DNA of 64,000 bases, from positions 64,732,951 through 64,796,950 of the forward strand of contig NC_133402.1 in NCBI RefSeq assembly GCF_047511655.1. The letters are read 5' to 3'. The notes under the pieces were generated by a model. The model did no database searches and was not told where the DNA came from. It was given only the letters and a program-made list of their open reading frames with translations. The DNA is from Castor canadensis. Lineage: Eukaryota > Chordata > Mammalia > Rodentia > Castoridae. Position 1 is the stretch's first letter. Each line of letters starts with the position of its first letter. The position numbers and the translations under genes were made by a program. Positions 23,554 through 52,784 of this stretch are shown piece after piece.

Positions 23554-23627
23554 TGTTGGGGTCTGAGATTGACCACCCCTCAGAGGAACAAAAAGACACT
23601 CATGATAATGTAAGCCACAAAGCGAGG

Positions 23628-23633
23628 TTGATT
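23628..23633 (-). promoter_or_regulatory. Decayed polyadenylation signal of the 3' LTR
   Basis: The minus strand reads AATCAA here. The aligned position in the 5' LTR (31708-31713) reads AATAAA. This is the copy that would end full-length proviral transcripts. Confidence 0.8.
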
Positions 23634-23711
23634 TCCAGCCAGCTGGGGTCCGGGTGTCCGCCCAAGGCAGTGGGTTTCAACATGGACCCCGAATACAAAA
23701 TTCAGGCTGCT

Positions 23712-23717
23712 TTTATA
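23712..23717 (-). promoter_or_regulatory. LTR TATA box (3' LTR)
   Basis: TATAAA on the minus strand, identical in sequence and position to the 5' LTR copy. It lies about 84 bp upstream of the polyadenylation-signal position, leaving room for a short R region. Confidence 0.75.
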
Positions 23718-24036
23718 TTTTTTTAGACATTAGTCATGGTCACACAGCAATTTTTATGGTCCCTGGGGTCACATATTTCTGATATCACCCACATCTTGGT
23801 GGTGGGGCAAGATTACTTGAAGATTATTTATCAGGAATTTGGTAAACACCAGGTGTCTCAACTCATTGACTCACATACCATTTTAGCAAGATTAACCAGA
23901 AATAGTCCCTGTTCCCAGAAACCATCCCACCTCCCTCAGTTCCAGTAAGTGGTGGCTTGGGTCATGTTAGCCATGGCTGGTTTCAGGCTGAGTGGGCTGC
24001 AAGCCTCAAAGGTACCCTAACATTTGTACCCTAACA

Positions 24037-29532: not shown

Positions 29533-29535
29533 CTA
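29533..29535 (-). promoter_or_regulatory. gag-pol UAG readthrough codon
   Basis: The minus strand reads TAG in the frame shared by nucleocapsid and protease, followed at once by purine-rich sequence (AGGGCACGGGAC). Gammaretroviruses make Gag-Pol by suppressing such a UAG. I did not fold the downstream pseudoknot. Confidence 0.85.
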
Positions 29536-31196
29536 GTCACTGTCCATTCCAGCTAACAGGACTTGGGCATCATTATTGGGCCTGCTATTTGGTCCCGGGT
29601 GACCCTGGAGTTTGGGACATTCCTTCTTCCAGTGTCCATATTCCTTACAATAGGCACATTGTCCCTGGTCTAGCCTGGGTCGATCTCTTTGGGGACATGT
29701 GGGACCAGTCCATCCAGAACTCGGTCCAGCCAGACCCTGGACTCCTGCTATAAATATCTTAGCCATCTCTTTTTGCTGTTTCTTGTTTTCCTTCCTCTGG
29801 TGTTCCCTGTCCTCCTTCCAAATCCTTTCTTGTAGTTCCTGATTCTCCTTCCTGATTCTATCCTCTCGTTCTTCTGGGGTTTCTTGGGTGTTAAAAACCC
29901 TTTCAGCTACTTTCATCAGATCCCAGGTAGTCATCTCCCCAAGCCCTTCCTGCTTATATAGTTTCTTCCTAATATCAGGGGCAGCCTGATTTATGAAGGA
30001 CATTATCACAGCTGACTGATTCACCTCCGCTAGTGGCTCTAGGGGGGTATACTGTCTGTATGCATCGTAAAGACGCTCAAGGAATGCGGCTGGGCTTTCA
30101 TTTTCCCCCTATATTATTGCCTTTACCTTAGCCAAATTGGTAGGGCGGCGGGCTGCCACCCGGAGGCCTGCCATAAGAGGCTAGCGGTAGACCCAGAGAC
30201 ACTCCCTACCTTCTGTGGTCCCATAGTCCCAGTCAGGTCTGTTTAAAGGAAAACGATCATCAATCAGGTTTGGCAGGGTGGTCGGTCGCCCATTGTCACC
30301 GGGGACATTCTTTCTGGCTTCAATGAGAATCTGCTCCTGTTCTTCGGTGGTGAATAGGGTCTTAAGGAGCTGCTGACAGTCATCCCATGTGGAACTGTGA
30401 GTATGCAAAATGGACTCGAACAGATCAGTCAGGCCTCTAGGGTCCTCAGAAAAAGGAGGATTCTGGGCTTTCCATTTGTACAGGTCACTATTGAAAAAGG
30501 CCAATACTGATAGGTGAGTCCCCCATTGGGACCAGCACCACCCAGGGCCCACACCAGGAGGATGGGGGGCCCAGTGGAAGTGGAGGAGGGCTCTTTCTCT
30601 GGGGTTTCTTCTCACTGCCTATGGGGCCTGAGTCCCCTCGCCAGTCCGGAGACCAGGGCAGGGGGTGCAGACGGGGAGGCTGACAAGTGGGGAAGCTCAG
30701 AGGAGCCATCTGCCTCTGGCTGGAGTGGCACGGCAGCGGCATATGGCGGGGGAAGTACTTCACAATCTAAGTCTATCAAGGATGGATGGAGAGTTGGGTC
30801 TTCCTGAAGAATAGGCTTCTTAAGGGAATTAACGGGAGTGGGGGTGTTCCCCGACACGGCCAGTATTGCGGGCCCGTCTGTAGGTGCTCCATGGATAAAT
30901 GGCCGCAGCCAGGAAGGGGGGTCTTCTACTAAAGTCTGCCACATAAGGACATAGGGATATTGATCAGGGTGGCCATGAAGACCGGGTCTATTAATGACAT
31001 CTTGGACCTTCTTAATCGTGTCCAAGGAGAAGGTACCTTGAGGAGGCCAGCCTACATTAAAGGTTGGCCATTCCACTGAGCAAAGGGTGTCAAACTTACC
31101 TTTCTTAATTTTCATGCCATAATTGTGTCCCTTAGTGCGGATTTCTGAAAAATGACTCAGAAGAAGGGTCTTAGGAGTTACCTGAGCCTGTCCCAT
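29533..31196 (-). pseudogene. gag: gag remnant (MA-p12-CA-NC)
   Basis: Gag builds the virus core. The ATG at 31194-31196 starts MGQ, a myristoylation signal. MA and the p12 region are open for 194 codons and contain a PPPY late-domain motif (residues 149-152). A TGA at 30612-30614 ends that frame. The same frame can be followed into the start of capsid (QYWPF near 30500), where a one-base indel in the A5 run at 30494-30498 moves the rest to the pol frame. Capsid continues ([16 protein letters not shown]) with TAG codons at 30181-30183 and 30109-30111. It is followed by a charged coiled region (about 29770-29890) and one CCHC knuckle at 29617-29658. The last codon before the readthrough TAG is at 29536. 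Confidence 0.93.
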
Positions 31197-31454
31197 GATG
31201 ATCAGGAGAGATGGACAGAGGAGACAGCAAAAAACAAAAGAGACAATTCCAGCAGACAAACAAATTCGCACAGGACTCTCCAACATACACAAGTTCCGGC
31301 CGGTCAACCAGACTACTCTCACAGGTGTAATTCCATTCACACCAGCCTCTGGATCCTTACCCAAAGACCGCCCAAAAGGCGTCCACTGAGGACACCAGCG
31401 CGGCTCCTGACTGTCGGGGGTGTCTCCCACGACTTCCAATAGTGAAGCCTCCAG
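31197..31454 (-). CDS. glycoGag-type leader in frame with gag (near-cognate start, putative)
   Basis: The gag reading frame stays open upstream of the MGQ methionine to a TGA at 31500-31502, with no stop for 101 codons. A CTG at 31452-31454 has a strong start context (GCC before it, G after it) and would add 86 residues. An in-frame ATG at 31284-31286 would add 30. The last roughly 23 residues before MGQ are hydrophobic (residues such as AGIVSFVFCC), as expected of a membrane segment. Murine leukaemia viruses make glycosylated Gag from an upstream CUG with an 88-residue leader and a membrane segment near the Gag start, so size, start type and layout all fit. No sequence comparison was possible, and any product would stop at 30612. 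An ordinary untranslated leader open by chance remains possible. Confidence 0.6.
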
Positions 31455-31613
31455 GGCTGTGACCCCTTCCTTCCACTCAATGAGAATTCCCAACCAAATT
31501 CAGACGGGGACACTAAGTCCCTCCAAACGGAGGTGGCCAATCCTCCTTCCGTGGTCTTTCTCAACTAAACCTCAGTATCAGAGGCCGTTTGTTCCTCTCA
31601 GGGAGGGGCTGAG

Positions 31614-31631
31614 ATCTCGGTGGGACTTCCA
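31614..31631 (-). promoter_or_regulatory. Primer-binding site, tRNA-Gln type
   Basis: Two bases inside the 5' LTR the minus strand reads TGGAAGTCCCACCGAGAT. It is complementary, apart from one or two positions, to the 3' end of tRNA-Gln as I know it. This differs from the tRNA-Pro site of most murine leukaemia viruses. The TGG start and the spacing fit a genuine site. Confidence 0.8.
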
Positions 31632-31707
31632 GATGTTGGGGTCCGAAGTTGACCACCCCTCAGAGGAATACAAAGACACTCACTATAATGTAAGCCTCAA
31701 AGCGAGG

Positions 31708-31713
31708 TTTATT
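31708..31713 (-). promoter_or_regulatory. Polyadenylation signal AATAAA (5' LTR)
   Basis: AATAAA on the minus strand, 84 bp downstream of the TATA box. The 3' LTR has lost this hexamer. Confidence 0.8.
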
Positions 31714-31791
31714 TCCAGCCAGCTGGGGTCCGGGTATCTGCCCGACGCAGTGGGTTTCAACATGGACCCCGAATACAAAATTCAGGCTGCT

Positions 31792-31797
31792 TTTATA
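31792..31797 (-). promoter_or_regulatory. LTR TATA box (5' LTR)
   Basis: TATAAA on the minus strand in an A-rich setting. Transcription would be expected to start about 25-30 bp downstream, near 31765. Confidence 0.75.
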
Positions 31798-32112
31798 TTT
31801 TTTTGACATTAGTCACGGTCACACAGCAATTTTTATGGTCCCTGGGGTCACATATTTCTGATATCACCCACATCTTGGTGGGGCAAGATTACTTGAAGAT
31901 TATTTATCAGGAATTTGGTAATCACCAGGTGTCTCAACTCATTGACTCACATACCGTTTTAGCAAGATTAACCAGAAACAGTCCCTGTTCCCAGAAACCG
32001 TCCCACCTCCCTTAGTTCCAGTAAGTGGTGGCTTGGGTCATGTTAGCCATGGCCAGTTTCAGGCTGAGTGGGCTGCAAGCCTCAAAGGTACCCTAACATT
32101 TGTACCCTAACA

Positions 32113-32116
32113 GTAT
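32113..32116. repeat. Target site duplication (right copy, GTAT)
   Basis: gtat follows the final CA of the right LTR and matches 23550-23553. Beyond it the interrupted L1 sequence resumes. Confidence 0.85.
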
Positions 32117-34515
32117 ATAAACTGACATTTTCTTACAGATTTCAGTCTCCTTTCTTTGTTCTCAAGTTTTCACATTTTAATTATGATATGACACAGGATT
32201 GTACTTTTCAGGTACAGTTGGGGTTTAAAATGCCTCCTAAACATGGGCAAATATATCATTATATAGATTTGGAAAATTGTCTGTTTATTTCATTGAATAG
32301 TTTTCCTATGCCTTTAATTTGTATTCCAGCTCCTTCTTCAACCCTGTAAATTCTGTTTGGTCTTTAGATTATGTCCTAGAGAGTTGAATATTGTATTCAT
32401 TGGTATTCATATTTCTTTGTGATTATTTGTGTGCAACTCTTTGATCTTGTCTTCCATTTCTGGTATTCTTTCTTTTGTATGCTCTTATCTGCCACTAATA
32501 CTACCCACTGTGAATTGTATCTGATTTATTGAGATTTTCATTTCTAACTATCTTGTCAACTTGGCTTATTTTTCATAGTTTCTACTTATTTACTCAATTT
32601 GTCTCCATGTTTCTGACTTTCTTGTCTAGGTCTTGGATTGATTTTCTAACTTCATTTATCTGTTTACTTGAATCACCTCTGAGATCTCTGATCATTTTTT
32701 AACAGTAGGCTTCTGAATTTTCTCTCCAACATTTTGACCAGTTCATTATCTTTGGATTCAGTTGTTGAGTTTTTGTGGTGGGAGTTTAGAGGTGAGATAT
32801 TGTCCTGGATTTTCCTGTTAAATATCAACTTAAAATTTAAGTTTCCTTCTATTTCCTTGGGTGAATGGGGAAACTATGGCACTAGCAAGGCTAACAATCT
32901 AGCAATTAATCAAGTATCTTAATGAGTGGGGAAAAATTAGATCCTTTATCTGTTTCCCTACTAAGGTTGTATGAGAACAAAACTCTGGTTTCTATGGAGA
33001 TGATCTGGTAGCTTAAGACTGGTTAAAAGGTATAGGGATTGGAAATTGAGTGTTGACAGGATGGGGAAGTGAGACTATTGGAAAAAGGGGGGGTTGAGTG
33101 AAGAAGATATAGTATGAGTGAGCTCTGTATACTTACAAAAGGCAAATAGAGAATGGTTTGGGGAATACAGAGAAAACAAAAAAGAGATTATAGCAATTAG
33201 AAACCAAATTTTAAAAGGAGGAGAAAACAAATAAATAAAAGGACAAAAAAAAGAAAAGAAAAAGATGTAGCCAAATGAAAATAACTTAGATTAAGGGAAA
33301 AAAAAAGACAAGGAAACAAAGATAATGAAATAGCACTAATATTTCTTGTTAGAGAGATGTTGACATCCCCAACATTTGCACAGGTTAGTCCTGGCTGTTA
33401 AGGAAAGAGCTTCAGGAGGGAGGACTTGCAATTCTAGCTTAAAGTACAGCAAGAGCCTAGACACTGTGATTCCCAGACCTGGAATTCCCCAGCTGCAACC
33501 TTTGAATCCCCAGACATAGTTAGAAGCTGCCATTTGTTGTCCTTTACAGTCAAACAACTTCTCTAAGCTGAATTCCCAGTCAGTGGGAGCTCAATGCTTT
33601 GTTTTTTAAATTGACCTTATTCAATGGCGCTGTTGTGGCAGGTTTGGGCAGGGTCTATTTTTGATGTTTTCCTGCCAGGAACCCTTAATTGCCTGAACTG
33701 ACCCTCTCCCTCCTAAATTTGTCTCTAGTGGCAGATTTCCAGGTGGAACTGTGACTGGGCATCCCAGAAGTCTTTGGGCTGTTATTTTTTTATGTCCCCT
33801 TAATCACTCAATCTTAAAGCTTGCCTATCTGCAAGGAACTCTCTGTCAGTGAGAACTACATGCTTTCTTTTGGAAATATTTTGCAGGCAGTTAGGCAGAG
33901 TCACAGTTCCCTAACCCAGATCCCTTTAAGGTCTCAGTTTTCTGCAAGGCAAAGACTCTGTGCACAGATGTCTCAAGACACCCTGAGGATTGATTGCTTC
34001 CTGTTTTCAGTATCCCCTGAGTACCTCAGACTCCATCAGGAGGCCATCTCTGGAGATGGTGCCTTGCCACAGCTCTCTGAAGTATGAAGATTGAAGGGTT
34101 GTCTTGTCAGTACCTGGCCTTTTGTGCAGGGAAATTACAGTACTATCATATCCCTACCCTGGAGTTAGAGTTTCTGTGTGGTGTAATTGTTGTCCCAGAG
34201 CCAGGTTTGACAGTTTCTTGTGGCAGCTGTCTATCTTATCTTGAGGTGGAAACTTCAGCTTCCCCTCTCCTCAGAGGGAGCTGGGGCTAGTACCTCAAAC
34301 TCTTTCTCTCTTGTGTTTTGATTCAGTTCCCTGTATTTTTCAGATATCCTGTCACTCTGTTGTGTTTCTCTGTGATCTTGTTCTCCGCACTTCTGTATGT
34401 AGTCTCTTCTTTGTTATCCAAACTCTCATTCATGGAATGTGATGAAGAAAGCTTTTACTCCTTTACCATTTTGCCCTCTGGCCACCCATCCTGTTCCAGT
34501 TTAATCAAAAATTCA
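32117..34515 (-). mobile_element. Long old L1 (antisense), 5' portion beyond the provirus
   Basis: This continues the L1 at 18893-23549. Antisense sequence upstream of ORF2 is visible ('tttcattgaatagttttcctatgcc', 'cattatctttggattcagttg'), and a G+C-richer 5' region follows (33340-34510). It ends near 'accattttgccctctggcc', which resembles an antisense L1 5' terminus. ORF1 is not recognisable as an open frame. Without the provirus the two parts make roughly 7 kb, close to a full-length L1. Confidence 0.65.
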
Positions 34516-50559: not shown

Positions 50560-52634
50560 CTAATGTCCACATATGAGGGAGAACATACGATTTTTGGTCT
50601 TTTGGGCCAGGCTAACCTCACTCAGAATGATGTTCTCCAATTCCATCCATTTACCAGCGAATGATAACATTTCGTTCTTCTTCATGGCTGCATAAAATTC
50701 CATTGTGTATAGATACCACATTTTCTTAATCCATTCGTCAGTGCTGGGGCATCTTGGCTGTTTCCATAACTTGGCTATTGTGAATAGTGCCACAATAAAC
50801 ATGGGTATGCAGGTGCCTCTGGAGTAACCTGTGTCACGGTCTTTTGGGTATATCCCCAAGAGTGGTATTGCTGGATCAAATGGTAGATCAATGTTTAGCT
50901 TTTTAAGTAGCCTCCAAATTTTTTTCCAGAGTGGTTGTACTAGTCTACATTCCCACCAACAGTGTAAGAGGGTTCCTTTTTCCCCGCATCCTCGCCAACA
51001 CCTGTTGTTGGTGGTGTTGCTGATGATGGCTATTCTAACAGGGGTGAGGTGGAATCTTAGTGTGGTTTTAATTTGCATTTCCTTTATTGCTAGAGATGGT
51101 GAGCATTTTTTCATGTGTTTTCTGGCCATTTGAATTTCTTCTTTTGAGAAAGTTCTGTTTAGTTCACATGCCCATTTCTTTATTGGTTCATTAGTTTTGG
51201 GAGAATTTAGTTTTTTAAGTTCCCTGTATATTCTGGTTATCAGTCCTTTGTCTGATGTATAATTGGCAAATATTTTCTCCCACTCTGTGGGTGTTCTCTT
51301 CAGTTTAGAGACCATTTCTTTTGATGAACAGAAGCTTTTTAGTTTTATGAGGTCCCATTTATCTATGCCATCTCTTAGTTGCTGTGCTGCTGGGTTTTCA
51401 TTGAGAAAGTTCTTACCTATACCTACTAACTCCAGAGTATTTCCTACTCTTTCTTGTATCAATTTAAGAGTTTGGGGTCTGATATTAAGATCCTTGATCC
51501 ATTTTGAGTTAATCTTGGTATAGGGTGATATACATGGATCTAGTTTCAGTTTTTTGCAGACTGCTAACCAGTTTTCCCAGCAGTTTTTGTTGAAGAGGCT
51601 GCTATTTCTCCATCGTATATTTTTAGCTCCTTTGTCAAAGATAAGTTGCTCATAGTTGTGTGGCTTCATATCTGGATCCTCTATTCTGTTCCTCTGGTCT
51701 TCATGTCTGTTTTTGTGCCAGTACCATGCTGTTTTTATTGTTATTGCTTTGTAATATAGTTTGAAGTCAGGTATTGTGATACCTCCTGCATTGTTCTTTT
51801 GACTGAGTATTGCCTTGGCTATTCGTGGCCTCTTGTGTTTCCATGTAAATTTCACAGTAGATTTGTCAATCTCTTTAATGAATGTCATTGGAATTTTGAT
51901 GGGAATTGCATTAAACATGTAGATTACTTTGGGGATTATCGACATTTTTACTATGTTGATTCTACCAATCCATGAGCATGGGAGATCTCTCCACTTTCGA
52001 TAGTCTTCCTCAATCTCTTTCTTCAGAAGTGTATAGTTTTCCTTGTAGAGGTCTTTCACATCTTTTGTTAGGTTTACACCTAGGTATTTGATTTTTTTTG
52101 AGGCTATTGTAAATGGAATTGTTTTCATACATTCTTTTTCTGTTTGCTCATTGTTAGTGTATAGAAGTGCTAATGATTTTTCTATGTTGATTTTATATCC
52201 TGCTACCTTGCTATAGCTATTGATGATGTCTAGAAGCTTCTGAGTAGAGTTTTTTGGGTCTTTAAGGTATAGGATCATGTCGTCTGCAAATAGGGATATT
52301 TTGACAGTTTCTTTACCTATTTGTATTCCTTTTATTCCTTCTTCTTGCCTAATTGCTCTGGCTAGGAATTCCAGTACTATGTTGAATAGGAGTGGAGATA
52401 GTGGGCATCCTTGTCTGGTTCCTGATTTTAGAGGGAATGGTTTTAATTTCTCTCCGTTAAGTATAATGCTGGCTGTAGGTTTGTCATATATAGCTTTTAT
52501 AATGTTGAGGTACTTTCCTTCTATTCCTAGTTTTCTTAGAGCTTTTATCATGAAATGATGTTGGATCTTATCAAAGGCTTTTTCTGCATCTATTGAGATG
52601 ATCAAGTGGTTTTTGTCTTTGCTTCTGTTAATGT
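50560..52634 (-). pseudogene. L1 ORF2 C-terminal part (RT through cysteine motif), open frame
   Basis: ORF2p normally nicks DNA and reverse transcribes L1 RNA. This copy starts inside the RT domain ('[19 protein letters not shown]', motif A with its Asp) and continues through '[13 protein letters not shown]' and the FADD catalytic box ('[11 protein letters not shown]'). It then runs through the long C-terminal domain to a cysteine motif [18 protein letters not shown], ending in a stop at 50560. The frame has no stop. The open frame extends a few codons past the truncation point into flanking DNA, so its first residues are not L1. The N-terminal endonuclease is absent, so it is a dead fragment despite the clean frame. 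Confidence 0.93.
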
Positions 52635-52648
52635 TAACCAACAATCTT
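52635..52648. repeat. L1 target site duplication, right copy
   Basis: taaccaacaatctt, identical to 50056-50069. Confidence 0.9.
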
Positions 52649-52784
52649 AAACATGATTCATGTGCTGATTCATTTTGTACCTGCTTTTATGGGTTACTGT
52701 TCAACTTTTTCCTGTTTATTGTACTGTCTTTGTTATCTGTTTTTGTAAGGCTCTTTTTCGCTCTTTCTCCCTCCTTTCTTTCGT

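What the first reader, a model, noticed from the sequence alone, without database searches (positions are those of the whole stretch)
31197..31499. In-frame glycoGag-like leader upstream of ERV gag
The sequence shows the gag frame open for 101 codons upstream of the MGQ methionine. A CTG in strong context lies 86 codons before it, and a hydrophobic segment of about 23 residues ends exactly at the Gag start. Murine leukaemia virus makes glycoGag from a CUG with an 88-residue leader of the same plan (established). The inference is that this ERV lineage, which uses a Gln-type primer site, descended from a virus with a glycoGag. Chance openness over about 100 codons is roughly a 1% event under equal base use, though higher in G+C-rich DNA.
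Basis: partly seen in the sequence, partly recalled or inferred. Interest (0 to 1): 0.75.

Follow-up and report, generated by a model that had tools for sequence, protein, structure and literature searches.

The report
Fossil glycoGag leader in beaver-like retrovirus
An old virus insertion in what is most likely beaver DNA still carries the extra front end that lets some mouse-leukaemia-type viruses make a membrane-bound form of their core protein, and relatives in horseshoe bat and, in part, pangolin carry the same front end, so it is probably a real inherited feature of a known kind.

Summary
The gag frame is open for 101 codons before the MGQ start, a CTG in strong context lies 86 codons before it, and a hydrophobic segment ends at the Gag methionine. 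Openness alone is weak (1.2% of dinucleotide shuffles); the hydrophobic end is rarer (2 of 1093 stop-free shuffles). The decisive evidence is homology: the leader, in the gag frame, occurs in nine other beaver-type proteins and two bat-type proteins, and in part in a pangolin gene model. Window to bat: leader 49-50 of 84 identical, matrix 76 of 96. Relatives keep a GDVP-type motif like the LGDVP printed for the start of MuLV, KoRV and GaLV glycoGags (PMC4528783, passages). So this is most likely a genuine glycoGag leader, a new member of a known kind. This copy's gag is broken further on: a fossil. dN/dS could not be measured, since no relative's DNA was reached. Expression, topology and function are inferred.

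The parts
31197..31499 (-). open gag-frame leader, 101 codons, ending at the Gag ATG
31452..31454 (-).
31428..31430 (-). GTG in strong context (GAAGTC[GTG]G), 78 codons before the Gag ATG; aligns with the first residue of the LGDVP motif of known glycoGags; Met in five of eight beaver rows that reach it
31416..31427 (-). GDTP, this copy's form of the motif (GDIP in P0002, P0004, P0005, P0019, P0044; GDTP in P0012; GNVS in P0144; GDVP in bat and pangolin)
31197..31265 (-). hydrophobic segment of 23 residues ending at the Gag methionine, presumed signal anchor
   Evidence: 23 of 24 proteins with at least 20 residues before Gag have such a stretch
31284..31286 (-). in-frame ATG in weak context, 30 codons before the Gag ATG; Met in the 10 of 10 beaver rows aligned, absent in the two bat rows
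30612..31196 (-). start of gag (matrix and following region), ends in an in-frame stop
30181..30618 (-). gag capsid piece in another frame: this copy's gag is broken by a stop and frame changes
29533..30108 (-). gag capsid-nucleocapsid piece (PF02093, zinc knuckle); holds the only two N-X-S/T sites found in the three open gag pieces examined
31614..31631 (-). primer binding site, tRNA-Gln type (reference recalled)
31634..32112 (-). 5' LTR
23554..24036 (-). 3' LTR

Best explanation
The stretch is the inherited N-terminal leader of a glycoGag from a gammaretrovirus-like lineage with a Gln-type primer site. In the infectious ancestor a minority of ribosomes on the unspliced RNA would have started at a near-cognate codon (CUG 31454 or, better aligned to known glycoGags, GUG 31430) and read on into Gag. 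The hydrophobic end of the leader would act as an uncleaved signal anchor, leaving about 55-63 leader residues in the cytosol and Gag in the secretory lumen, where it is glycosylated and carried to the surface. By analogy with MLV its job would be to help the virus against host restriction and to raise infectivity. Shown here: the frame, its protein-level conservation, the hydrophobic end, the motif and its spacing. Inferred: start codon, topology, glycosylation, function. This copy has a stop after the matrix region, so it could at most give a membrane-anchored leader-matrix fragment.
For: Leader relatives: nine beaver-type proteins (P0002, P0003, P0004, P0005, P0012, P0014, P0019, P0128, P0144), Rhinolophus ferrumequinum P0035, unnamed P0017, and pangolin P0048 in part. 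Window to bat leader 49/84 (P0035) and 50/84 (P0017), matrix 76/96 (P0017). LGDVP is printed as conserved at the start of MuLV, KoRV and GaLV glycoGags, with a hydrophobic stretch directly before the Gag AUG (PMC4528783, passages). Distance from the G of the motif to MGQ, taken: window 77, P0017 79, P0035 79; P0051 74, P0057 70, Mus caroli P0058 75. A GDVP anywhere in the shuffled bat leader occurs in 1013 of 200000 shuffles, a GD[VAIT]P in the shuffled window leader in 1167 of 200000. Of 24 proteins with at least 20 residues before MGQ, 23 have a 19-residue hydropathy above 1.6 beginning 19-26 residues before MGQ. In a neutral simulation to the window-P0035 identity, 245-282 of 2000 leaders stay stop-free and 25-33 of 2000 also reach the observed mean BLOSUM62 score at changed sites.
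Against: The selection signal in the leader is modest: about 9-13% of stop-free neutral runs match the score seen with P0035 (-0.60); P0017 scores lower (-0.71) and was not simulated; for matrix 0, 0 and 1 of 2000 runs match. More than half of the stop-free runs keep a hydropathy above 1.6 (134-170), so the hydrophobic end alone is no proof of constraint. Relatives are seen only as predicted proteins, so copies with a closed leader would not appear; P0044 loses the leader frame half way, and P0003, P0019 and P0128 lack the Gag Met. Only 3 of 9 MLV-type rows show the GD motif; the other six records are 52-69 residues long before Gag, too short to reach it; P0038, 84 residues, lacks it. Profile comparison with the nine MLV-type leaders gives 4.4% probability, in the hydrophobic part only. 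No N-X-S/T site in the leader-matrix piece. KoRV has such a frame, yet no glycoGag was detected in infected human cells (PMC4528783, passages).
Confidence: 0.86

Rival explanations
1. The leader is conserved for its RNA (packaging, dimerisation or translation control) and the open frame is a by-product.
For: A packaging signal is suggested to overlap this part of the KoRV leader (PMC4528783, passages). Likeness extends upstream of the CTG. Protein records cannot show frameshifts that cancel out, and one block (SQEPRWC against EKVAQRR) is unlike between window and bat.
Against: No Rfam family matches 31150-32120 at E up to 1; the 437-base stretch folds no better than shuffles (z -0.04; 42 of 100 shuffles at least as good); the peptide keeps the same frame at both ends of the leader in beaver and bat rows.
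Confidence: 0.08
2. The open frame in this copy is chance in an ordinary 5' untranslated region.
For: 1.2-2.1% of shuffles are as open in this frame, 6.1% in any frame.
Against: The same peptide is found in bat-type and pangolin sequences.
Confidence: 0.02
3. The functional product is a shorter membrane Gag started at the in-frame AUG 31286 (30 codons before Gag), without the long cytosolic part.
For: Met in the 10 of 10 beaver rows aligned; the segment after it is hydrophobic.
Against: Weak start context; absent in both bat rows; residues upstream of it are shared between beaver and bat types, which this reading does not explain.
Confidence: 0.04

Closest known systems
MLV glycoGag (gPr80gag), CUG-started, 88-residue leader (PMC3423011, PMC5120145, passages)
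   Same: Frame open into Gag from a near-cognate codon; leader of 78 or 86 against 88 residues; hydrophobic segment before the Gag start; GDVP-type motif near the start
   Different: Outside the motif no convincing similarity to nine MLV-type leaders (4.4% profile probability); the motif-aligned codon is GTG here (Met in other beaver rows); no YXXL in this copy
Putative glycoGags of KoRV, GaLV and HERV-H (PMC4528783, passages)
   Same: Motif and hydrophobic stretch before Gag; endogenous examples already reported
   Different: Motif begins with Val or Met here; no KoRV product was detected in human cells; HERV-H shares only the first two residues of the motif
Gag-like proteins of Rhinolophus ferrumequinum (P0035, P0126) and the unnamed P0017
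   Same: Same leader in P0035 and P0017 (49/84 and 50/84); capsid-nucleocapsid of P0035 and P0126 74% and 75% identical to the window piece
   Different: The leaders lack the in-frame AUG and two residues before the SPVR block and have three extra residues; the P0126 record has no leader

Membership tests
gammaretroviral glycoGag | open frame continuous with gag upstream of the Gag AUG | tested here: met
   101 codons
gammaretroviral glycoGag | near-cognate in-frame codon in favourable context | tested here: met
   CTG 31454 and GTG 31430, both with G at -3 and +4; use of either not shown
gammaretroviral glycoGag | hydrophobic segment directly before Gag | tested here: met
   hydropathy 2.55; relatives
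gammaretroviral glycoGag | LGDVP motif at the start (printed as absent in FeLV and partial in HERV-H) | tested here: inconclusive
   VGDVP in bat and pangolin (4 of 5 letters), VGDTP in the window (3 of 5), mostly MGDIP or VGDIP in other beaver rows
gammaretroviral glycoGag | sequence similarity of the whole leader to MLV-type leaders | tested here: inconclusive
   hhalign 4.4%, hydrophobic part only
gammaretroviral glycoGag | purifying selection on the leader protein | tested here: inconclusive
   protein-level simulation suggestive; dN/dS not computable without DNA
gammaretroviral glycoGag | translation, N-glycosylation of the Gag part, type II topology, surface display | not testable with these tools
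   two N-X-S/T sites, both in the capsid-nucleocapsid piece, among three open gag pieces
gammaretroviral glycoGag | accessory, not defining: YXXL motif in the leader (MLV Y36; its mutant keeps partial activity, PMC5120145, passages) | tested here: not met
   none in the window copy or the two bat rows; YLCM in 8 of 10 beaver rows; YXXL in 3 of 9 MLV-type rows

The most novel reading that the evidence does not exclude
In this lineage the homologous glycoGag start codon drifted among CUG, GUG and AUG, so that some beaver copies would have made glycoGag from an efficient AUG, shifting the ratio of membrane Gag to structural Gag; and the lineage moved between rodents, bats and pangolins with its leader kept.
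Probability: 0.3. Interest if true: 0.5.

Novelty: new member of a known kind. Interest (0 to 1): 0.38.

Why it matters
[quoted passage not shown] The motif start position (CUG in known viruses, GUG or AUG here) is a natural series for testing how the amount of glycoGag is set.

Tried and rejected
Chance openness: set aside because of the cross-species matches. RNA element: no Rfam match, no folding excess; not excluded. DNA relatives: three scans of viral contigs and one of genome contigs gave no relative; five viral-contig scans and the second genome-contig scan were not used; the metagenome cap was 0 and I did not try it. Genome search for other copies: the same request was sent eight times and never answered, so there is no copy count and no dN/dS. 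Solved structures: no match to the 86-residue leader at E up to 10. Beaver literature: three papers, seen as titles and abstract starts, none on this subject by title. PMC4528783, PMC3423011, PMC5778647, PMC5120145, PMC3621094, PMC3265301 and PMC11237596 were seen as passages only; all other papers as search listings. The supplementary leader alignment of PMC5778647 (Fig. S3) was not seen. The motif pattern needs six residues before the motif and so reports none for P0002, P0004, P0005, P0058 and P0144; those were read. P0044 was left out and is counted here.

Full report
What is there. The finding lies on the minus strand at the 5' end of a full-length gammaretrovirus-like provirus. LTRs at 32112-31634 and 24036-23554 align at 458/483, flanked by the 4-base repeat ATAC. 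A Gln-type primer site (reference recalled) lies at 31631-31614. Gag begins at 31196 with MGQAQVTPK and its first piece matches Pfam Gag_MA at E 1.8e-34; Gag_p30, retroviral protease and TLV_coat are matched by later pieces (five provirus pieces were scanned). The gag of this copy is broken: an in-frame stop ends the piece 31499-30612, and further pieces lie in other frames.

Host. No hit in the protein search is marked as encoded by the window. For the matrix and middle capsid pieces the closest named relatives are from Castor canadensis (P0013, 84% over 147; P0037, 88% over 104), among unnamed jgi proteins of similar closeness; for the capsid-nucleocapsid piece the closest is an unnamed-species jgi protein (P0136, 91%) and the closest named is Rhinolophus ferrumequinum P0126 (75%). 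I infer beaver and call the close jgi proteins beaver-type; neither is proven.

Observation. The gag frame is open for 101 codons before the Gag ATG; the two other frames have stops there. Of 5000 dinucleotide shuffles 1.2% are as open in that frame, 2.1% reach 86 codons, and 6.1% reach 86 in any frame. The end of the leader is hydrophobic, with a 19-residue mean of 2.55; 2 of 1093 stop-free shuffles equal it.

Relatives. The search with the 295-residue open frame gave 46 proteins at E up to 0.001 among 2178 candidates; a search with the first 130 residues of bat protein P0035 gave 6 at E up to 0.1, itself included; a search with an 11-row alignment gave 348 among the 7996 candidates scored, of which 120 were listed. 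Of 157 proteins then held, 70 show a recognisable Gag start and 24 of these, the window included, have at least 20 residues before it; in 23 of the 24 there is a strongly hydrophobic stretch beginning 19-26 residues before Gag (P0082 is the exception). The other 46 begin 0-12 residues before Gag; gene callers prefer an ATG, so these say little for or against a leader. Four jgi proteins (P0002, P0004, P0005, P0144) begin at a leucine that is TTG in the window, probably a start chosen by the gene caller.

The leader family. Nine beaver-type proteins besides the window carry the leader in whole or part. Bat protein P0035, the related unnamed P0017 (85/93 in the leader) and, without the hydrophobic end, a pangolin gene model (P0048) carry it too. 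Window to bat: leader 49/84 and 50/84, matrix 76/96. Among beaver rows leader and matrix differ about equally (window to P0002: 69/81 and 87/100), as expected if most of those changes came after insertion. Against this reading: proteins with closed leaders cannot appear in such a search, P0044 loses the leader frame half way, and P0003, P0019 and P0128 lack the Gag Met.

Selection. Only proteins of the relatives are available, so dN/dS could not be computed. Instead the window's leader DNA was mutated neutrally in the script until its protein identity fell to that with P0035: 245-282 of 2000 runs (three transition rates) stayed stop-free and 25-33 of 2000 also reached the observed mean BLOSUM62 score at changed sites (-0.60; P0017, at -0.71, was not simulated). 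Of the stop-free runs 134-170 kept a hydropathy above 1.6, so that part is not informative alone. For matrix against P0017, 482-554 of 2000 stayed stop-free and 0, 0 and 1 reached the observed score. The leader shows moderate evidence of protein-level constraint, matrix strong evidence.

Link to known glycoGags. Nitta and colleagues report LGDVP at the start of M-MuLV, KoRV and GaLV glycoGags, only LG of it in HERV-H and not in FeLV, with a hydrophobic stretch directly before the Gag AUG (PMC4528783, passages). Bat and pangolin leaders have VGDVP; beaver rows have MGDIP (P0002, P0004, P0019, P0044), VGDIP (P0005), VGDTP (window, P0012) or MGNVS (P0144). From the G of the motif to Gag there are 77-79 residues here and 70-75 in P0051, P0057 and Mus caroli P0058; the other six of nine MLV-type rows are too short to show it, and P0038 lacks it. 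Outside the motif, profile comparison finds no convincing similarity to the nine MLV-type leaders (4.4%). The motif places the homologous start at GTG 31430-31428; of eight beaver rows that reach it three have Val and five have Met, and bat and pangolin have Val. Initiation at a GUG upstream of the CUG has been seen by ribosome profiling in MuLV, and FeLV has an in-frame AUG (PMC5778647, passages). Likeness upstream of the CTG leaves the exact start open.

How it works. Inferred from MLV: rare initiation at a near-cognate codon on unspliced RNA, insertion of the hydrophobic end in the ER membrane with the N-terminus in the cytosol, glycosylation of the Gag part, surface display, and help against host restriction (PMC3423011, PMC5120145, passages). 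None of this was tested here. The MLV YXXL motif has no counterpart in the window copy or the bat rows; YLCM occurs in 8 of 10 beaver rows.

Verdict. It is a new member of a known kind: putative glycoGag leaders in endogenous viruses have been reported before (PMC4528783, PMC3423011, passages). Eight literature searches in the open PMC library listed no paper that by its title describes this lineage's leader; most subscription papers are not held there.

Noticed in passing
window 50560-52686 (-): A 708-codon open frame matching reverse transcriptase (PF00078), by its look (recalled) an L1 ORF2-type retrotransposon protein.
   Followed up: partly
P0038 and P0052: A second gammaretrovirus-like Gag family, named Castor canadensis in P0052, whose look-alike P0038 (unnamed, jgi) has an 84-residue hydrophobic-ended leader with a WTPxG block also seen in the window's leader.
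   Followed up: partly
window 31361 (-): A splice-donor-like site (GGGTAAGG) lies inside the leader frame; if used, env RNA would carry the leader's candidate start codons.
   Followed up: no
P0019 and P0044: In two beaver-type rows the gag frame is open far upstream of the leader stretch, about 100 residues more than in the window.
   Followed up: no
P0052 and P0048: A Castor canadensis gene model named as a protein-L-isoaspartate methyltransferase-domain protein reads as a 566-residue retroviral Gag, and a pangolin model named lysine-specific demethylase 5B holds a leader fragment; probably naming errors or merged models.
   Followed up: no
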